Assembly (NCBI RefSeq): GCF_000682735.1
Contig: NZ_AWFD01000035.1
Location: 1-64,000 of the forward strand
Direction of reading: 5' to 3'
Origin: Hyphomonas sp. CY54-11-8
Lineage (GTDB): Bacteria; Pseudomonadota; Alphaproteobacteria; Caulobacterales; Hyphomonadaceae
Length of the DNA stretch: 64,000 nt
Shown here: piece after piece, positions 26,245 through 58,377 of the stretch
How positions within the stretch are numbered: the stretch's first letter is position 1
Layout: each line of letters starts with the position of its first letter
Made by a program: the position numbers and the translations under genes
The notes under the pieces: model-generated
Databases searched by the model: none
What the model was told of the DNA's origin: nothing
Seen by the model: the letters and a program-made list of their open reading frames with translations, nothing else

Positions 26245-27108
26245 ATGACCCAACAGACTTCCAGGCCGTGGTATCGAGCGGCGGCAGGCGTGCTGCCGCG
26301 TTCGGTGCGGCGCCGATTGCTGTGCCTGGGCCGGGACCTGGCGAGCATTCGGGCCCGCCTGAAACCGGGCGCGAAACCGGCACCATGGTCCAGTTTGCAC
26401 GATGTCGGCGGCGGCGAATTTCACACGGTTGGCCGCGTGATCCTCAGCCATTTGATCAATGAAGCGGGCCTGACGCGGGACGATCATGTGCTGGACATTG
26501 GCTGCGGCACAGGCCGCGTTGCCTTTGCCTTGGCGGACTATCTGTCGCCCAAGGGCTGCTATACCGGATTTGACGTGGCCCCCAGCGGACTTGCCTGGAT
26601 GATCCGGCACCTCCCGCCAGCTGCGGCGCCGTTCCGCATCGTCCGGGCAGACGTGTTCAACACCGAATACCGCCAGAAGACAGCCAGCCGGGCCGAAGCC
26701 TATCGCTTCCCCGTCAGTGACGGCAGCGTCGATGTGGCCTTCGCCACCTCCGTCTTCACGCACCTGTTGCCAGCAGACGCCGAGAACTACATCGCCGAAA
26801 TCGGGCGCAGCCTGCGGCCCGGCGGGCGGGCCTATGTGACCGCCTTTCTGATGACGGAGGCGCGCCGAGCCCCGGCGACAAGCGGGCAGGCTTTCGTGAA
26901 ATTCCATCGTTTCGGCGACGTCGCGCATGTCGGCGATACGAAAGTGCCGGAAGCGATGATCGCGTTCGACGAGACGGTCTTCATGGGCTGGGTCGCCAGG
27001 GCGGGGCTGGATCTCGTCCCGCCGGTGAAATACGGCCACTGGAGTGGTGAAGCCCCCGTGCCGGGACAGGATTTCCAGGACGTCCTTGTACTGAGGAAGC
27101 CGGCCTAG
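26245..27108 (+). CDS. Class I SAM-dependent methyltransferase
   Basis: A 287-residue methyltransferase (Methyltransf_25/11 type). SAM motif I is VLDIGCGTGRVAFAL near residue 80. It is followed by an acidic strand end (YTGFDVAP) and a post-motif DVAFATSVFTHLLP, then RPGGRAYVTAFL. The substrate is not evident. The ATG at 26245 is preferred over 26176, which would overlap the xseA leader. Its 3' end is convergent with a hypothetical gene, with a hairpin between them. Confidence 0.85.
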   Translation: MTQQTSRPWYRAAAGVLPRSVRRRLLCLGRDLASIRARLKPGAKPAPWSSLHDVGGGEFHTVGRVILSHLINEAGLTRDDHVLDIGCGTGRVAFALADYLSPKGCYTGFDVAPSGLAWMIRHLPPAAAPFRIVRADVFNTEYRQKTASRAEAYRFPVSDGSVDVAFATSVFTHLLPADAENYIAEIGRSLRPGGRAYVTAFLMTEARRAPATSGQAFVKFHRFGDVAHVGDTKVPEAMIAFDETVFMGWVARAGLDLVPPVKYGHWSGEAPVPGQDFQDVLVLRKPA

Positions 27109-31143: not shown

Positions 31144-31193
31144 GCAAACCGGCAGGTGCGCCATGCCTTGGATGTGCGGTCCAGAAATGGCGG

Positions 31194-31259
31194 TTTGCCC
31201 GCCGCTAGGCGATTTGGGGGGAGTGCGGCGGGCAAAACGCGGGACGCTGTGAGGCGTCC
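31194..31259 (-). ncRNA. Two-hairpin element with C6 loop (relative of the 38.4-39.0 kb array)
   Basis: On the minus strand, GGACGC-CTCACA-GCGTCC (31259-31242) is followed after five bases by a 12-bp perfect stem TTTGCCCGCCGC/GCGGCGGGCAAA. That stem's 19-base loop (31224-31206) holds CTCCCCCC. The order (hairpin, short CG spacer, GCCCGCC-based stem with a C-run loop) copies the units at 38369-39008. No U-tract follows the second stem. It lies in the 196-base gap between a plus-strand amidohydrolase and a convergent ADH gene, so it may instead be a bidirectional terminator. A TTTTTTT run is at about 31318. Confidence 0.4.
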
Positions 31260-33202: not shown

Positions 33203-33736
33203 TCAGGACAGGACAGAGCTGGGAGGAGACTCGTCTGCCCATGCGGAGCGGCGCTCGGAGATAACCCCCGAAATCTTCTGCCAGGCTGGCAGCGTCTTCG
33301 CGAGGAACTTGATGTCGAAGTCTTCCTGGGTACGGAATTCAAGCACTTCCACGCCGTCGGGGCCGGGCGTGTAGCGATAGGCCTTGCCCGCACCCAGGAA
33401 GAAACCGTCGCCTGGACCCAGCATGTCTGTGCCCAGTTGGAGGCTGCCAGCGACGATATAATAGAGACAATCGGAATTATGCGTATGAAGAGGAAGCGGG
33501 AAGCCGCTCTTGAACCAGGCATAGGTGAGGCTGAAGCCCGGCTGGGAGAAGAGGGTCTTGACCACATTGCCTTCGGCAAAGCCGGCTTCGAGCGCGGCGC
33601 CGATGCCGGCTTCGAGGTCTGGCGTCATGTCGGCCACTTCCATATGCGCGGTCTCGTCCAGCGAGGGCGCCTCCGACGTGCGGAAAATCTGGTAGCCGGT
33701 TGCGGCCGGTTTTTCGGTGACGGGTGCGTCGCTCAT
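33203..33736 (-). CDS. Cupin-domain protein
   Basis: A 177-residue protein with a single cupin barrel (about residues 85-165: PLPLHTHNSDCLYYIVAGSLQLG, then LGPGDGFFLGAGKAYRYTPG). Two of the four usual metal ligands are present (HxH). The Glu of motif 1 and the His of motif 2 are replaced, so metal-dependent oxygenase activity is doubtful. It resembles the ChrR/2,4'-dihydroxyacetophenone-dioxygenase-like group. ATG at 33736, with ribosome site GGAGG. It heads the operon that is divergent from the TetR gene. Confidence 0.8.
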   Translation of the reverse strand: MSDAPVTEKPAATGYQIFRTSEAPSLDETAHMEVADMTPDLEAGIGAALEAGFAEGNVVKTLFSQPGFSLTYAWFKSGFPLPLHTHNSDCLYYIVAGSLQLGTDMLGPGDGFFLGAGKAYRYTPGPDGVEVLEFRTQEDFDIKFLAKTLPAWQKISGVISERRSAWADESPPSSVLS

Positions 33737-33936: not shown

Positions 33937-34566
33937 ATGACCGACACGAAAGAGCGTTCAGGACGCCGGCGAACCCGCCGCGGCGAGGAAACCCGCCGGC
34001 AGCTGATCGAAGCCTGTATCGATTGCCTGAACGAGCGCGGATATGCCGGCACATCAATCGAGGCCGTCATGTCGAAAGCCGGGATCAGCCGCGGATCCGT
34101 CCTGAACCAGTTCCCGACCCGGCTGGACCTGATGACCGCGACCATTGAGGCCGCGATGCGCGGCATGATGGCCGACACCAGCGCCCGGTTCGCCCGGATT
34201 TCAGATCCGGTCGAGCGCCTTCGTCGTCTGTGCGACCTCTACTGGGAAACGCAACGCCTGCCGGTGTCAGCGGCGGTGACGGAAGTGCTGCTGGCGGCGC
34301 GCTGGGACACCGATCTGGCGGCCATGCTGGGCCGGGTCACCAAGGAAATCGAGATCGAGCTGGACGCCGAAACGCGGCGGCGCGGCGAAGAAGCGGGCGT
34401 CAACGACATCGAGGCGCTGGTCGTGCATGCGCGTATGCTGATCCTGTCGCTGCGCGGGATGACGCTGGAACTCATGTTCGACCCGGACCGGCAGATCATC
34501 CACCATGCGCTGGAGGAAATCCGCACATCGCACCAGGTTTTCTGCGACCGGGTGCTGGCAGGCTAG
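33937..34566 (+). CDS. TetR-family regulator, probable repressor of the cupin operon
   Basis: A 209-residue TetR protein with a basic N-terminus (SGRRRTRRGEETRRQ). The HTH is at residues 17-64 (LIEACIDCLNERGYAGTSIEAVMSKAGISRGSVLNQFPTRLDL), followed by a helical ligand domain. It is transcribed away from the cupin-SDR-ADH operon across a shared operator. Its 3' end overlaps the sigma-factor gene by four bases on the opposite strand. Confidence 0.9.
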   Translation: MTDTKERSGRRRTRRGEETRRQLIEACIDCLNERGYAGTSIEAVMSKAGISRGSVLNQFPTRLDLMTATIEAAMRGMMADTSARFARISDPVERLRRLCDLYWETQRLPVSAAVTEVLLAARWDTDLAAMLGRVTKEIEIELDAETRRRGEEAGVNDIEALVVHARMLILSLRGMTLELMFDPDRQIIHHALEEIRTSHQVFCDRVLAG

Positions 34567-36413: not shown

Positions 36414-38294
36414 TTAGGCTTCGGCTTCCAGCGCTTCGGCGGCTTCGAGCCAGGCGTGTTCGGCTTCTTCGGCCGTTTCGGCGTGGGTGGCGCGGGTTTT
36501 CAGGAGCTTTTCAAGCTCTTCCGGCGGAGGGGTGCCTTCGGCAAGTTTCGCGTCAATCTTCGCGATGGCGGCGTTCGCCTTTTCCATCCGCTCCTCGGCT
36601 TCGCGGGCTTTTTTCTTCAGGGCGGTGAGGCGTTTCTTGTCCTCCGGCGAGGCGGCCGGTTTCGGGGCGGATGATTTCGGCTTCGCGTCTTTTGACTTGG
36701 CCTCTTTCGCCTCGGCGCGGTCAGCCTTCATGACGAGGGCGCGGTAGTCTTCGAGGTCGCCGTCATAGGTCGTCGCGCGGCCGTCTTTCACCAGCCACAG
36801 ACGGTCAGCGGTCGCTTCGGCGAGGTACACGTCGTGCGTGATCAGGAGGACGGCGCCGGGGAAGTCGTTCAGCGCGTAGATAAGTGCCTCGCGGCTGTCG
36901 ATGTCGAGGTGAGAGGTCGGTTCGTCGAGGATCAGGATGTGCGGCGCCGAATGGGACATGAGGCCTAGTAGCAGGCGCACTTTTTCGCCGCCCGACAGTT
37001 TCTCGACCTTTGTTTCCACTTTCTCCGCCGAGAAGCCCATGGCGGCCGCGGCGGCGCGCACTTTCGCGGGTGGCGTGTCCGGCGGCAGCAGGCGGCGCAC
37101 ATGGTCCAGCACGCTATCGCCCTCAGACAGCTCGTCCAGCTGGTCCTGCGAGAAATAGCCAATGCGGACAGCCTTCGGCGTGACGCGCTGGCCCGCCATG
37201 AGCGGGAGGCGTTCGGCGATGGATTTGACCAGCGTGGTCTTACCCTGTCCGTTTGCGCCGACGATGGCGATCCGGTCGTCCGGATCCAGACGAAGGTTGA
37301 CCTTCGACAGGATACGCGCGCCTTCGCCATAGCCGAGATCGGCATCCTTCAGTTCCAACATCGGCGGGGCCAGCTTGTCGGCGGGCGGCGGGAAGTGGAA
37401 CGGCGTGGTGCGGTCGGCGACGGGGATGGAGATGTCCTGCATCTTCTCCAGCATCTTGATGCGCGACTGGGCCTGCCGGGCCTTCGAGGCCTTGGCGCGG
37501 AACCGGTCGACGAAGCTCTGCAGGTGCGCGCGCTCCTTGGCCTGTTTGGCCTGCTGGGATTCCAGCTGTGCCAGCTTGGCGGCGCGAAGCTTCAGCCAGT
37601 CATCATAGCCGCCAGGCGTGATTGACAGCTTCCTGTGTTCCAGCGCCATCGTGTGGGTCACGCAGCGGTTCAGCATTTCCCGGTCGTGGCTGACGATCAG
37701 TACCGTATACGGATATTTTCGGATATAGGTTTCCAGCCAGGCGGCGCCTTCGAGGTCAAGATAGTTGGTCGGCTCGTCCAGCAGCAGGAAGTCCGGCTGG
37801 GAGAAGAGCACGCCGGCAATGGCCGCGCGCATACGCCAGCCGCCGGAGAATTCCTTGGTCGCACGGGTGAGGTCTTCATCCGAAAAGCCGAGGCCGTGGA
37901 GCACTTCGGCGGCGCGGGCTTCTGCCGACCAGGCGTCGATGTCCATCAGGCGTTCGTGGATCTCGCCGATCCGGTTCGGATCCGTCGCGGTCTCGGCTTC
38001 CTGCATCAGGGCGTGGCGCTCGGTGTCGGCGGCGAGGACAACCTCCAGCACGGTCTCGTCGGTCGGGGCGACTTCCTGTGCCACCCAGCCAAGCCGGGCG
38101 CCGGTGTTCAGCCGGATCGCGGCGTCATTGGTCGGATGTTCCACATCCTCCCGGATCAGGCGCAGCAGGGTCGACTTGCCGGTGCCATTGCGGCCGACAA
38201 GCCCGACTTTCCAGCCGGCCGAGATCTGCGCGGAAGCAGACTCGAACAGGGGCCGGGCTTCGACCTGAAAATCGAGGTTCGTGATGGTGAGCAT
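36414..38294 (-). CDS. ABC-F family ATPase (Uup/EttA-like)
   Basis: A 626-residue protein with two nucleotide-binding domains and no membrane segment. NBD1 has GRNGTGKSTLL (near residue 35) and EFSGGWRMR with DEPTNYLDLEG. A charged linker follows. NBD2 has GANGQGKTTLV (near residue 345), LSGGEKVRLLL and DEPTSHLDIDS. The C-terminus is a Lys/Glu/Ala-rich coiled coil (about residues 530-626). ABC-F proteins act on ribosomes during translation or resistance. Which subfamily this is cannot be fixed by eye. Confidence 0.94.
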   Translation of the reverse strand: MLTITNLDFQVEARPLFESASAQISAGWKVGLVGRNGTGKSTLLRLIREDVEHPTNDAAIRLNTGARLGWVAQEVAPTDETVLEVVLAADTERHALMQEAETATDPNRIGEIHERLMDIDAWSAEARAAEVLHGLGFSDEDLTRATKEFSGGWRMRAAIAGVLFSQPDFLLLDEPTNYLDLEGAAWLETYIRKYPYTVLIVSHDREMLNRCVTHTMALEHRKLSITPGGYDDWLKLRAAKLAQLESQQAKQAKERAHLQSFVDRFRAKASKARQAQSRIKMLEKMQDISIPVADRTTPFHFPPPADKLAPPMLELKDADLGYGEGARILSKVNLRLDPDDRIAIVGANGQGKTTLVKSIAERLPLMAGQRVTPKAVRIGYFSQDQLDELSEGDSVLDHVRRLLPPDTPPAKVRAAAAAMGFSAEKVETKVEKLSGGEKVRLLLGLMSHSAPHILILDEPTSHLDIDSREALIYALNDFPGAVLLITHDVYLAEATADRLWLVKDGRATTYDGDLEDYRALVMKADRAEAKEAKSKDAKPKSSAPKPAASPEDKKRLTALKKKAREAEERMEKANAAIAKIDAKLAEGTPPPEELEKLLKTRATHAETAEEAEHAWLEAAEALEAEA

Positions 38295-38368: not shown

Positions 38369-38480
38369 AAAAAGGGGCCCGCCATGCCTATCAATCCGGG
38401 GGGGCAGGACCAGGCATGGCGGGCTGTTCGCTGTCCCCGAGTGCGGTGGGAGAATGGGGATATGGTATCCACAGCGAAGA
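38369..38480 (-). ncRNA. Array unit A: predicted two-hairpin sRNA
   Basis: Hairpin 1 is TTCGCTGT/ACAGCGAA (38478-38471 with 38434-38427), with inner TCCCC/GGGGA pairing and a loop carrying TTCTCCCACC. Hairpin 2 is a 13-bp perfect stem, GCCCGCCATGCCT (38377-38389) against 38412-38424, whose 22-base loop reads CCTGCCCCCCC on the minus strand. The stem is followed on the minus strand by CCCC then TTTTT (38373-38369), a good intrinsic terminator. Being the last unit, it ends 75 bases before the ABC-F start. Confidence 0.5.
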
Positions 38481-38555
38481 AGGCCCAAAGTGCGGGCTTC
38501 ACAGACACGACGTTTCGGTCCGGCGCTTTATCCAGAATTTTTTCGCTGACCTGAG

Positions 38556-38646
38556 AATAAAGTGGAGCCCGCCGTCCCGGTTGGGATTTCCGGCCCGGCG
38601 GGCAGTCCGCGTCTGGCAGTTTCAGGGCTGTCATAGCGAACGGGAC
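38556..38646 (-). ncRNA. Array unit B: diverged two-hairpin element
   Basis: It starts with GTCCCGTTCGC as units C and D do. Hairpin 1 is GTTCGC paired (one wobble) with GCGGAC, with a CAG/CTG tip and loop CCCTGAAA. Hairpin 2 is GCCCGCCG/CGGCGGGC (38567-38574 with 38596-38603) with inner CCGG/CCGG. It lacks the ATG extension and the C6 loop of the others. A weak TTTATT follows. Possibly a decayed copy. Confidence 0.35.
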
Positions 38647-38702
38647 TTTTGAACATGACGACCGGCCCGCGCGAATTATCCATATCGGCCGAAAAGCGAG
38701 AC

Positions 38703-38804
38703 AAAACCCGCCATGTCGTCTATCGCGGGGGGTGAGGACGGGACGACATGGCGGGCGGTTCGCCGTTCGGTTTCCAGGGGGGAAAGAAACGTTTCGAACG
38801 GGAC
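38703..38804 (-). ncRNA. Array unit C: predicted two-hairpin sRNA
   Basis: Hairpin 1 is CCGTTCG/CGAACGG (38801-38795 with 38769-38763) plus an inner GTTTC/GAAAC stem, exposing TTTCCCCCCTG in the loop. Hairpin 2 is a 14-bp perfect stem, CCCGCCATGTCGTC (38707-38720) with 38742-38755. Its loop reads CCTCACCCCCC on the minus strand. It is followed directly by TTTT (38706-38703). Both loops are C-rich, as in sRNAs that pair with Shine-Dalgarno sequences. Confidence 0.52.
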
Positions 38805-38899
38805 CTCTCTCGTCCTTTCCATATGGGAGAAGCAGGCGCCGTTTCCATGGTATTCACGCGTTCGTGAGAGGTGAAATTCCGGTAAGGAATCGGGGCCTG

Positions 38900-39008
38900 A
38901 AAATGGAGGTGCCCGCCATGCAGTCTGTTGGGGCTCAGGGGGTAAGGCAGACAGCATGGCGGGCGGTTCGCTGTGTCATTTCAGGGAGGATACAACAGCG
39001 AACGGGAC
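38900..39008 (-). ncRNA. Array unit D: predicted two-hairpin sRNA
   Basis: Hairpin 1 is a 9-bp perfect stem GTTCGCTGT/ACAGCGAAC (39003-38995 with 38974-38966) whose loop holds TCCTCCCTGAAA, containing the anti-Shine-Dalgarno core CCUCC. Hairpin 2 is GCCCGCCATGC (38911-38921) with 38954-38964, continued after one mismatch by GTCTG/CAGAC. Its loop reads CCTTACCCCC on the minus strand. Downstream is ACCTCCATTTT, a weak U-tract. This is the first unit on the minus strand, about 110 bases after the upstream gene ends. Confidence 0.5.
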
Positions 39009-39116
39009 CGGTTGCGGCGAACCGCTTAAAAGTCAAACGCAGCGCGCTGCAGTTCCCGTCGCAGGAATCTCGATTGTGGCGGAAGTTTAATCCGAAGGAC
39101 GCAGCGAAGCTGCCGC

Positions 39117-39605
39117 CTATTTGATTGCTTGCAGATCGTCCCAGTATTCGATGGGCGGAACGTCGCGGATCATCTCTTCGACCATGGCCGTGAAGCCGGC
39201 ATTGAAATAACCGGACGTCAGGGCCCAAAGTGCGCGGCCGCGTTCGGTGCCCAGCACGAAGTAGATCACGCCGCGATAGGTTTCCCACGACTCCTTGTCC
39301 ATGGCGCCGGACTTGTATTGCAGCCACTCATATTCCCGCGCACGCATCTGGCCGATCATCCAGAAGATCACCTTGGTCTTCTCTTCGAAACTCGGCGTTT
39401 CGACTTGCGACAATATCCGGCCGAGTTCCGGAAACTCGACGAATTTGTAGACGCCGGTCTGGTCATTCGCGAGCTGTGTCTGCCGCGACTCCGAGCGCAG
39501 CAGCACGGTGCCCTGACGGACCTGTATGGTCAGGAAAATCAGGGTGGCGGCAACCACGACGACGCCTGCGATCTGGGCGATATAGGCAATCTGCTCAAGG
39601 CTCAT
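39117..39605 (-). CDS. Hypothetical single-pass membrane protein
   Basis: A 162-residue protein with one N-terminal membrane helix (about residues 9-28, AGVVVVAATLIFLTIQV) and a soluble helical domain (SRQTQLANDQTGVYKFVEFPELGRIL, later EYEWLQYKSGAMDKESWETYRGV). This type is common in marine Hyphomonadaceae/Caulobacterales and has no known function. It is immediately upstream of the sRNA-like array on the same strand and next to a similar N-terminally anchored protein. Confidence 0.72.
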   Translation of the reverse strand: MSLEQIAYIAQIAGVVVVAATLIFLTIQVRQGTVLLRSESRQTQLANDQTGVYKFVEFPELGRILSQVETPSFEEKTKVIFWMIGQMRAREYEWLQYKSGAMDKESWETYRGVIYFVLGTERGRALWALTSGYFNAGFTAMVEEMIRDVPPIEYWDDLQAIK

Positions 39606-56994: not shown

Positions 56995-58377
56995 TTACTT
57001 CGACAGTTCAGTGATCAGCACATACCAATGGTCCAGTGCGCCGGGGATGGAGGCGACCGGCACACGCTCGTTCAGGCCGTGAGCATACTCGTCCGAAGGC
57101 TTCATGAAGATGCCGGTGACGCCATAGGTATCGATGCCTTCCTTGCGGAAGAACAGGCCGTCCGTCGTGCCGGCGGACATGGACGGGATAATCGGCAGTC
57201 CGGGGGCCTGGGCATCGACGGCCTTGCGCAGCGCGGTCATGACCTCCGGGTGCAGCGGTGAGGTTTCAGACTGCGGGAAGACTTCCGGGAATGTCACCTG
57301 TGCGCTCTCGCCCGCCAGTTCCTGCAGCTTCGCCATCACGTCGAGCGGCGGAATGCCGGGGAAGATACGGCAGTTGATGTTCGCCACCACGCTCTGCGGC
57401 AGGGCGTTTGGTGCATGGCCGCCGGTAATCTCGGTTGGCACGCACGTGGTGCGGACCTGACCGACATATTCCGGATGTTTCGACAGCTCTGCTGCGGCTT
57501 CGGCGTCGTCCGGATTTGTCGAGAAGCGCGCCATCGCCTCGCCCAAACCGCCTTCCGTGCGCTTGGCCGTTTCGGCGAAGAAAGCGCGCGTCAGTTCACT
57601 TGAGCGGACAGGGAACTGGTAAGTGCCGATCCGTTCCAGAACACCCGCCATGTCGACGATTGCATTGTGCGCGGTCGGGCGGCTGGAGTGGCCACCGGGA
57701 TTGGTGATGGTGATCTTGAAGTCTGCATAGGTCTTTTCGCCAGCCTGCAGGCTGTAGAAGGCGAAGCTGCCATCCTCGTTCAAGGTGCCGCCACCTCCAT
57801 CGGCGTTCAGTACGTAACGTGCATCCCGGTAGAGCGGTGCAATCGTCTCGGCTGTCTTTTGCGCGGTCTCTTCGTCACCTGTCAGGATAAGGATGATGTC
57901 GTTTTCGGGTTCGAACCCTTCGCGCTTTAGGCGCAGCAGTGTGGTGACCAGCATGGTGAGGCCGAACTTGTCGTCCAGCACGCCGCGTCCATAATAATAG
58001 GTGCCGTCGGTTTCCATTGTGAACGGCGCGCGTTCCCAATCGGCCGGGTTCGCCTCGACCACGTCCATGTGGGCGTTCAGCAGGATCGGCGCGTTGGAGT
58101 TCCGGCCGTGGTAGGTTGCGATCAGGGTCGCGGTCTCGCCCAATGGGACGATTTCAACGTCCTCCTCCGGAAAGCCGCCAGCCTTCAGTTCGCCTGCAAG
58201 GTATTCGGCATAAGCCGGGACCTGCCCGCGGCCTGCAACCGTGTCGTACGCCACCGATTTGCCGAGGATCTCGGTTGCCTTCTCGACATCGACCTGCTCG
58301 GCGTTGGCGAAAGTTGGGGTTGACACGCAGCCAACGAGGAAGAGCGCCGCAAGGCTGGTGAGGAGTTTCTGTGTCAT
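56995..58377 (-). CDS. M20 family metallopeptidase, lipoprotein
   Basis: A 460-residue M20/M25/M40 peptidase. Signal with lipobox LVGC (Cys about residue 17). Metal site NAHMDVVEAN near residue 105, GRGVLDDKFGLTML near 138, catalytic ILTGDEETAQ near 168, and the HxSRPT dimerisation-domain segment GGHSSRPTAHNAI near 236. A C-terminal metal ligand lies near AHGLNERV. It cleaves acyl-amino acids or dipeptides in the periplasm. Its ATG overlaps the stop of the small membrane protein gene. Confidence 0.92.
   Translation of the reverse strand: MTQKLLTSLAALFLVGCVSTPTFANAEQVDVEKATEILGKSVAYDTVAGRGQVPAYAEYLAGELKAGGFPEEDVEIVPLGETATLIATYHGRNSNAPILLNAHMDVVEANPADWERAPFTMETDGTYYYGRGVLDDKFGLTMLVTTLLRLKREGFEPENDIILILTGDEETAQKTAETIAPLYRDARYVLNADGGGGTLNEDGSFAFYSLQAGEKTYADFKITITNPGGHSSRPTAHNAIVDMAGVLERIGTYQFPVRSSELTRAFFAETAKRTEGGLGEAMARFSTNPDDAEAAAELSKHPEYVGQVRTTCVPTEITGGHAPNALPQSVVANINCRIFPGIPPLDVMAKLQELAGESAQVTFPEVFPQSETSPLHPEVMTALRKAVDAQAPGLPIIPSMSAGTTDGLFFRKEGIDTYGVTGIFMKPSDEYAHGLNERVPVASIPGALDHWYVLITELSK

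What the first reader, a model, noticed from the sequence alone, without database searches (positions are those of the whole stretch)
38369..39008. Four tandem two-hairpin RNA-like units with C-rich loops
Seen directly: four units (38369-38480, 38556-38646, 38703-38804, 38900-39008), each composed on the minus strand of a hairpin GTTCGCTGT/ACAGCGAAC or a variant, then a GCCCGCC-based hairpin. Units A and C end in U-tracts, and the loops contain CCCCCC or TCCTCCC. Tandem homologous sRNAs with anti-Shine-Dalgarno loops are known as 'cuckoo'/CcsR RNAs in Rhodobacterales. This array has that architecture but a different sequence and no adjacent DUF1127 gene, so it may be a new family.
Basis: partly seen in the sequence, partly recalled or inferred. 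Interest (0 to 1): 0.9.

Follow-up and report, generated by a model that had tools for sequence, protein, structure and literature searches.

The report
Tandem C-loop small RNAs in Hyphomonas
A marine bacterium carries a row of four related, probably regulatory small RNA genes, each with its own promoter-like block, of a family found so far only in part of its genus and matching no catalogued RNA family.

Summary
Four homologous two-hairpin units lie on the minus strand between an ABC-F gene and a small hypothetical gene; unit B is the weakest. A covariance model finds units in 15 of 42 genomes of the genus (Hyphomonas, from named relatives): four copies in six genomes, two in four, one in five, near the same ABC-F gene. 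Capped searches found no convincing member in the other 9 genera of the family, nor elsewhere in 385 sampled class genomes. Stems covary; 34 of 35 units keep at least four consecutive C in a loop. Rfam has no match. It is not a dispersed palindrome, and not a cuckoo/CcsR/ar14 member by the features tested: no CCUCCUCCC motif, no DUF1127 gene detected in the genome. Unit C shares with the single-copy homologues a palindrome (8 of 8 and 5 of 5) and a sigma-70-like site. B and A share TGGATAA-N15-CGTC (13 of 14). D has a third, less clear block. Best reading: an ancestral sRNA amplified to four separately controlled paralogues whose C-rich loops pair with G-rich translation-start regions. Transcription, strand and targets are untested.

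The parts
38906..39007 (-). Unit D: two-hairpin RNA; hairpin 1 38966-39003 (loop with CCUCCC), hairpin 2 38911-38964 (loop with CCCCC)
   Evidence: z -6.2; 97.9 bits
38701..38803 (-). Unit C: two-hairpin RNA, both loops with CCCCCC; hairpin 2 38706-38756 followed by UUUU; the copy whose upstream region matches the single-copy homologues
   Evidence: z -5.9; 87.5 bits
38562..38645 (-). Unit B: shortest and least stable unit, C-run of only 3
   Evidence: z -1.55; 52.5 bits
38372..38482 (-). Unit A: two-hairpin RNA; hairpin 2 38377-38424 (loop CCCCCCC) followed by CCCCUUUUU
   Evidence: z -5.2; 54.0 bits
38854..38867 (-). Palindrome TCACGAACGCGTGA 64 nt upstream of unit C; candidate regulator site
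   Evidence: exact form once in each of 14 of 42 genus genomes, each time at the unit; 8 of 8 C units and 5 of 5 single-copy units, 0 of 22 D, B and A units, counting one one-base variant
38821..38849 (-). Sigma-70-like -35/-10 pair of unit C (CATGGA-N17-CCATAT; TTGGAC and CTATAT in a single-copy homologue)
   Evidence: by eye; the consensus scan did not list it; inference
38657..38682 (-). TGGATAA-N15-CGTC block 37 nt upstream of unit B; ECF-sigma-like geometry, though its GATAAT also fits a sigma-70 -10
   Evidence: 6 of 6 B units
38509..38534 (-). TGGATAA-N15-CGTC block about 52 nt upstream of unit A
   Evidence: 7 of 8 A units; absent in L012
39009..39024 (-). Leader hairpin CGGTT-loop-AACCG in front of unit D (GGGTT-loop-AACCC in L007 and L008; not kept in L009)
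   Evidence: by eye
36414..38294 (-). Neighbour: ABC-F ATPase gene, closest NCBIfam model PRK10636 (below its cut-off); marks the locus, probably separately transcribed
39117..39605 (-). Neighbour: 162-aa hypothetical protein, no Pfam or NCBIfam match

Best explanation
A new family of trans-acting small RNAs known only from one part of Hyphomonas. An ancestral single-copy gene beside the ABC-F gene was duplicated locally to four copies. Each copy is most likely transcribed from its own promoter as an RNA of about 100-130 nt with two hairpins that display C-rich loops, the second doubling as a weak terminator in A and C. The loops pair with G-rich Shine-Dalgarno or translation-start regions of several mRNAs and mostly lower their translation. 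Because C keeps the ancestral upstream block while B/A and D have others, the copies would deliver similar RNAs under different signals. Shown here: homology, structure, loop conservation, conserved upstream blocks, copy-number pattern. Inferred: transcription, strand, promoter class, targets, sign of regulation.
For: Covariation: 51 cells with both-side changes against 21.9 shuffled in a MAFFT alignment of 24 units (I chose the structure from these sequences), 76 against 30.8 in 35 units aligned to the model (leans to the structure); slid controls far lower in both. Units in 15 of 42 genus genomes at one locus. Longest C-run in loops averages 5.3 against 2.87 resampled; 34 of 35 units have a loop run of at least 4. 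Fold z -6.0 to -8.8 in the five single-copy homologues. Upstream 100 nt of the singles resembles that of C only: mean local score 36.4 (range 25-62) against 14.0 shuffled (max 28), while D, B and A score 14.7, 12.7 and 15.2. Palindrome at -64 to -66 in all 13 C and single units and none of the other 22; TGGATAA-N15-CGTC at -37/-38 in 6 of 6 B and -50 to -52 in 7 of 8 A units. Loop indels argue against coding.
Against: No RNA-seq was available. Strand is not proven by the pairs: 39 G-U against 35 A-C cells (24 against 15 without the five innermost pairs); plus-strand folds of C and D also beat shuffles (z -3.9, -5.7). Two covariation measures are not exceptional (53 and 462 of 500 shuffles reach them), one (137 of 500). 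No terminator-like site was listed at any unit (that scan allows loops of 3-8 only). The one sigma-70-like site is the GATAAT of the B block, which competes with the ECF-like reading; A of L012 lacks the block. Unit B is poorly structured. Shared blocks in A and B could be leftovers of duplication. No target was predicted.
Confidence: 0.66

Rival explanations
1. A diverged cuckoo/CcsR or ar14 locus: one transcript, RNase E-processed into four anti-Shine-Dalgarno RNAs.
For: Tandem homologous units, C-rich loops, alphaproteobacterium; CcsR1-4 is also a cluster of four (PMC10253847 passages).
Against: No CCUCCUCCC in 0 of 35 units means the motif is absent; no DUF1127 detected in the genome; the six Rfam matches at E up to 10 include no such family (whether Rfam holds a cuckoo or CcsR model was not checked); separate upstream blocks.
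Confidence: 0.1
2. A cis-acting leader or attenuator of the ABC-F mRNA.
For: Unit A ends 77 nt before the ABC-F start codon.
Against: In G019 and G003 the unit is about 1.2 and 1.6 kb from the ABC-F gene (from coordinates); the ABC-F gene is present in all 27 genus genomes without units; a promoter-like stretch just before the ABC-F start is seen in zero-copy relatives too (by eye); four copies are not expected of a leader.
Confidence: 0.1
3. The plus strand is the RNA: hairpins with G-rich, GGA-containing loops that could titrate a CsrA-like protein.
For: Plus-strand folds of C and D beat shuffles; G-U/A-C balance only mildly favours minus.
Against: In the three units folded both ways the minus strand has the lower z: A -5.2 against -1.75 (ranges not identical), C -5.9 against -3.9, D -6.2 against -5.7 (B was folded on minus only). 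Upstream blocks and U-tracts are placed for the minus strand.
Confidence: 0.08
4. Mobile palindromic (REP-like) repeats.
For: Palindromic core CCCGCCATG...CATGGCGGG in tandem.
Against: The four model matches in the own genome are these units (94 of 2496 candidates scored), and an exact hairpin-2 pattern occurs only here (two matches); same locus in the 15 genomes; conserved loops and upstream blocks.
Confidence: 0.02

Closest known systems
CcsR1-4 / cuckoo RNAs (Rhodobacter sphaeroides)
   Same: Four homologous tandem sRNA units, alphaproteobacterial; C-rich loops (that CcsR loops are C-rich is recalled)
   Different: CcsR1-4 are co-transcribed with the DUF1127 gene ccaF1 behind an RpoHI/RpoHII promoter and processed by RNase E (PMC10253847 passages); here no DUF1127 gene was detected and the units have separate upstream blocks
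ar14 family / NfeR1 (Sinorhizobium meliloti)
   Same: Multi-hairpin sRNA with loop seeds; [quoted passage not shown]
   Different: Three hairpins each with ultraconserved CCUCCUCCC (PMC10746234 passages); here two hairpins with variable C-runs
GsrN (Caulobacter crescentus)
   Same: Exposed C-rich loop; GsrN transcription requires the EcfG-type sigma factor sigT (PMC5869019 passages), and the A/B blocks have ECF-like geometry
   Different: GsrN BLAST hits were limited to Caulobacteraceae, typically near the general-stress genes though not in C. crescentus itself (PMC5869019 passages); no sequence comparison with GsrN was made here
AbcR1/AbcR2
   Same: Tandem alphaproteobacterial sRNAs with CU-rich anti-Shine-Dalgarno motifs (PMC7143759 passages)
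   Different: Three stem-loops, Hfq-binding, partial homology to SuhB RNA (PMC7143759 passages); no Rfam match here

Membership tests
cuckoo/CcsR | CCUCCUCCC-type anti-Shine-Dalgarno motif in loops | tested here: not met
   0 of 35 units; CCUCC in a loop of 12 of 35
cuckoo/CcsR | Adjacent small DUF1127 gene (CIN1 locus) | tested here: not met
   PF06568: 0 matches in the own genome (a 37-position model, control rings in 1 of 14 genomes)
cuckoo/CcsR | Tandem homologous hairpin units | tested here: met
cuckoo/CcsR | One precursor processed by RNase E | not testable with these tools
   separate upstream blocks argue against
ar14 (NfeR1) | Three hairpins with identical loop motif | tested here: not met
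   two hairpins per unit (D and L029 may add a leader hairpin); motif absent
any Rfam 15 family | Covariance-model match | tested here: not met
   0 at gathering in 64 kb; best at E up to 10 is F6, 20.5 bits against a gathering score of 46
GsrN | Promoter of EcfG type | tested here: inconclusive
   A and B carry TGGATAA-N15-CGTC; the EcfG consensus GGAAC-N16/17-CGTT is recalled and is not matched exactly
GsrN | Sequence homology to GsrN | not tested
   no comparison made
REP-like elements | Many dispersed copies per genome | tested here: not met
   (capped candidate lists)

The most novel reading that the evidence does not exclude
A lineage-specific sRNA gene was born beside an ABC-F gene in Hyphomonas, amplified to four paralogues, and the paralogues took different promoters (ancestral operator plus sigma-70, an ECF-like kind, and a third kind), so that nearly interchangeable C-loop RNAs report different stresses to one set of mRNAs.
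Probability: 0.45. Interest if true: 0.6.

Novelty: new member of a known kind. Interest (0 to 1): 0.47.

Why it matters
It is a young case of sRNA birth, amplification and probable loss inside one genus, with zero-, one-, two- and four-copy relatives and separable upstream blocks. It would let one test whether tandem sRNA paralogues are kept for dosage or for different signals. It also suggests that C-rich loop sRNAs may arise repeatedly in alphaproteobacteria without common descent.

Tried and rejected
Cuckoo/CcsR and ar14 membership: not met on motif, DUF1127 and Rfam. REP-like repeats: not met. The hit in another family of the order (G226, L046): 41.5 bits with R1 but 31.9 with R2; read as a look-alike, a short ORF followed by a C-loop hairpin (by eye). 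Rfam near-matches (F6, three animal microRNAs, a snoRNA, NrsZ) are taken as chance. TGGATAA-N15-CGTC as a regulon motif: 3 sites in the own genome, 2 of them here. The palindrome as a regulon: no exact copy elsewhere in 42 genomes. Pair statistics as a strand test: inconclusive.

Rows left out before counts: L010 (same place as L013), L011 (same as L026) and L008 (near copy of L007) were left out of A2 and A5. A2 (24 rows) also left out units then in hand: A of L004, L005, L006, L012 and L013, and B of L005. Two opposite-strand matches (E 0.00029 and 0.00057) were kept out of A5 by a stricter threshold. One search read the region before the ABC-F gene in 30 of 41 loci (locus cap). Model searches scored only the best candidates per genome: 94, 13, 39, 10.

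Full report
What is there. Between the ABC-F gene (36414-38294, minus) and a 162-aa hypothetical gene (39117-39605, minus) lie four homologous units on the minus strand. Each has two hairpins. Folding against dinucleotide shuffles gives z of -6.2 (D), -5.9 (C), -1.55 (B) and -5.2 (A). Long C-loop hairpins as such are not rare in this window; the tandem homology and covariation are what matter.

Relatives. A DNA search of 101 genomes finds matches in 11, own genome included, all in the same genus. A covariance model from 24 units finds 37 units in 15 of 42 genus genomes: four in each of G000, G004, G006, G018, G032, G036; two in each of G031, G035, G041 and G027 (the last split over two contig ends, so possibly more); one in each of G003, G019, G024, G025, G037. 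Named records show the genus to be Hyphomonas (for example G032 has the contig length of H. jannaschiana VP2). A wider model gives the same 15 of 105 genomes of the family, 1 of 10 genera, and 2 of 385 sampled class genomes, the own genome and one congener. These searches score only the best candidates per genome (94, 39, 13 and 10) and use stricter filters, so diverged members elsewhere could be missed.

Structure. In the 24-unit MAFFT alignment 87.4% of cells pair and 51 cells have both sides changed against 21.9 in shuffles; slid controls give at most 45.3% and 19. Two measures there are not exceptional: pairs with both-side changes (53 of 500 shuffles reach it) and further pair types (462 of 500). 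In the 35-unit alignment, which is fitted to the model, 18 of 26 pairs show a both-sided change (0 of 500 shuffles) while further pair types remain ordinary (137 of 500). In four of the five single-copy homologues the predicted fold also pairs the 5' and 3' ends (for example GAGAGAG with CUCUCUC in L027, CGAAGAG with CUUCUUUG in L030), closing a junction around the two hairpins; L029 has a 5' hairpin instead. The same stem is not predicted for unit C of the window, whose hairpin 1 rearranges when the leader is added. Loops: 34 of 35 units have a C-run of at least four in a loop, 26 in both; CCUCC is in 12 of 35.

Upstream blocks. Aligned upstream regions show three kinds. C and the five single-copy homologues share ATTACC...TTCACC-like repeats, the palindrome TCACGAA(C/G)GCGTGA, a sigma-70-like pair (TTGGAC with CTATAT in L028; CATGGA-N17-CCATAT in the window) and, in most, a GAGAGAGG start. 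The palindrome lies at -64 to -66 in 8 of 8 C units and 5 of 5 single units and before none of the 22 D, B and A units. Its exact form occurs once in each of 14 of 42 genus genomes, each time at the unit (in G027 the unit is cut by the contig end); G031 has a one-base variant. TGGATAA-N15-CGTC lies at -37 or -38 in 6 of 6 B units and at -50 to -52 in 7 of 8 A units, absent in L012; the own genome has three such sites, two of them here. The GATAAT inside the B block is also the only sigma-70-like site that the consensus scan listed in this stretch, so the ECF-like reading, which rests on recalled knowledge, has a plain competitor. D has a third, less clear block and a leader hairpin. Local alignment scores show that only C's upstream region is related to that of the singles. 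The alphaproteobacterial sigma-70 signature used for comparison is that printed for NfeR1 (PMC10746234, passages).

History. An ABC-F protein tree (24 rows, two of them partial; midpoint root) groups the five single-copy genomes (100/100), places the three zero-copy genomes G008, G012, G016 as their sister (99/96), and groups the ten multi-copy genomes with weaker support (82/92); G026 (no unit found, 74% complete) sits apart. In these four relatives a same-strand open frame of 226-480 codons ends 43-59 nt before the ABC-F start, leaving no room for a unit. The simplest reading is one origin, one amplification, reduction to two copies in G041/G035, and loss in the zero-copy group; a later separate origin in each group is not excluded by this tree. 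C is taken as the orthologue of the single-copy genes because of its upstream block; unit bodies alone do not settle this (D, C, B and A score 37.7, 33.5, 20.3 and 40.4). The ABC-F gene was found in all 27 genus genomes that lack units.

Mechanism. I infer transcription of each unit from its own block and base pairing of the C-rich loops with G-rich translation-start regions, as reported for the loop motifs of NfeR1 (PMC10746234, passages); GsrN (PMC5869019, passages) has a C-rich loop and raises KatG, so activation of some targets is possible too. Nothing here shows transcription, and the strand is supported by block placement, U-tracts and folding rather than by pair statistics. No terminator-like site was listed at the units; two overlapping ones were listed upstream of D at 39036-39051, where 1.1 are expected by chance.

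Literature. Searches for Hyphomonas with small RNA and RNA-seq, Hyphomonas with sRNA, cuckoo RNA and related terms listed no description of this family, judged from titles and abstract starts in the held open-access library; the cuckoo family paper itself is not held. Passages were seen of PMC10253847, PMC7143759, PMC5869019, PMC8307010 and PMC10746234.

Noticed in passing
window 39117-39605 (-): 162-aa hypothetical protein, 86-97% identical beside the arrays of relatives; weak relatives (24-25%) lie near the single units of G003 and G019, so the neighbour may share history with the RNA.
   Followed up: partly
L046 1501-1687 (-) (G226, another family of the order): A short ORF of 37 codons is followed by one hairpin with a UCCUCCCCCCC loop (by eye); looks like an independent C-loop RNA in a 3' region.
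   Followed up: partly
L086, L090, L091, L098, L103, L105, L110, L114: One Solirubrobacterales MAG has eight stretches with a palindrome matching the search pattern, suggesting a repeated palindromic element there.
   Followed up: no
L119 1501-1526 (own genome C11:19228-19253): Third TGGATAA-N15-CGTC site, 95 nt before an open frame that reads like an exported lipoprotein (by eye); could be a second promoter of the same kind or chance.
   Followed up: partly
window 31190-31240, 33577-33614, 33964-34001, 57017-57068 (-); 26591-26650 (+): Other long hairpins with C-rich loops from the control scan, not examined.
   Followed up: no
window 39036-39051 (-): Two overlapping terminator-like sites between the hypothetical gene and unit D, about the number expected by chance.
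   Followed up: no
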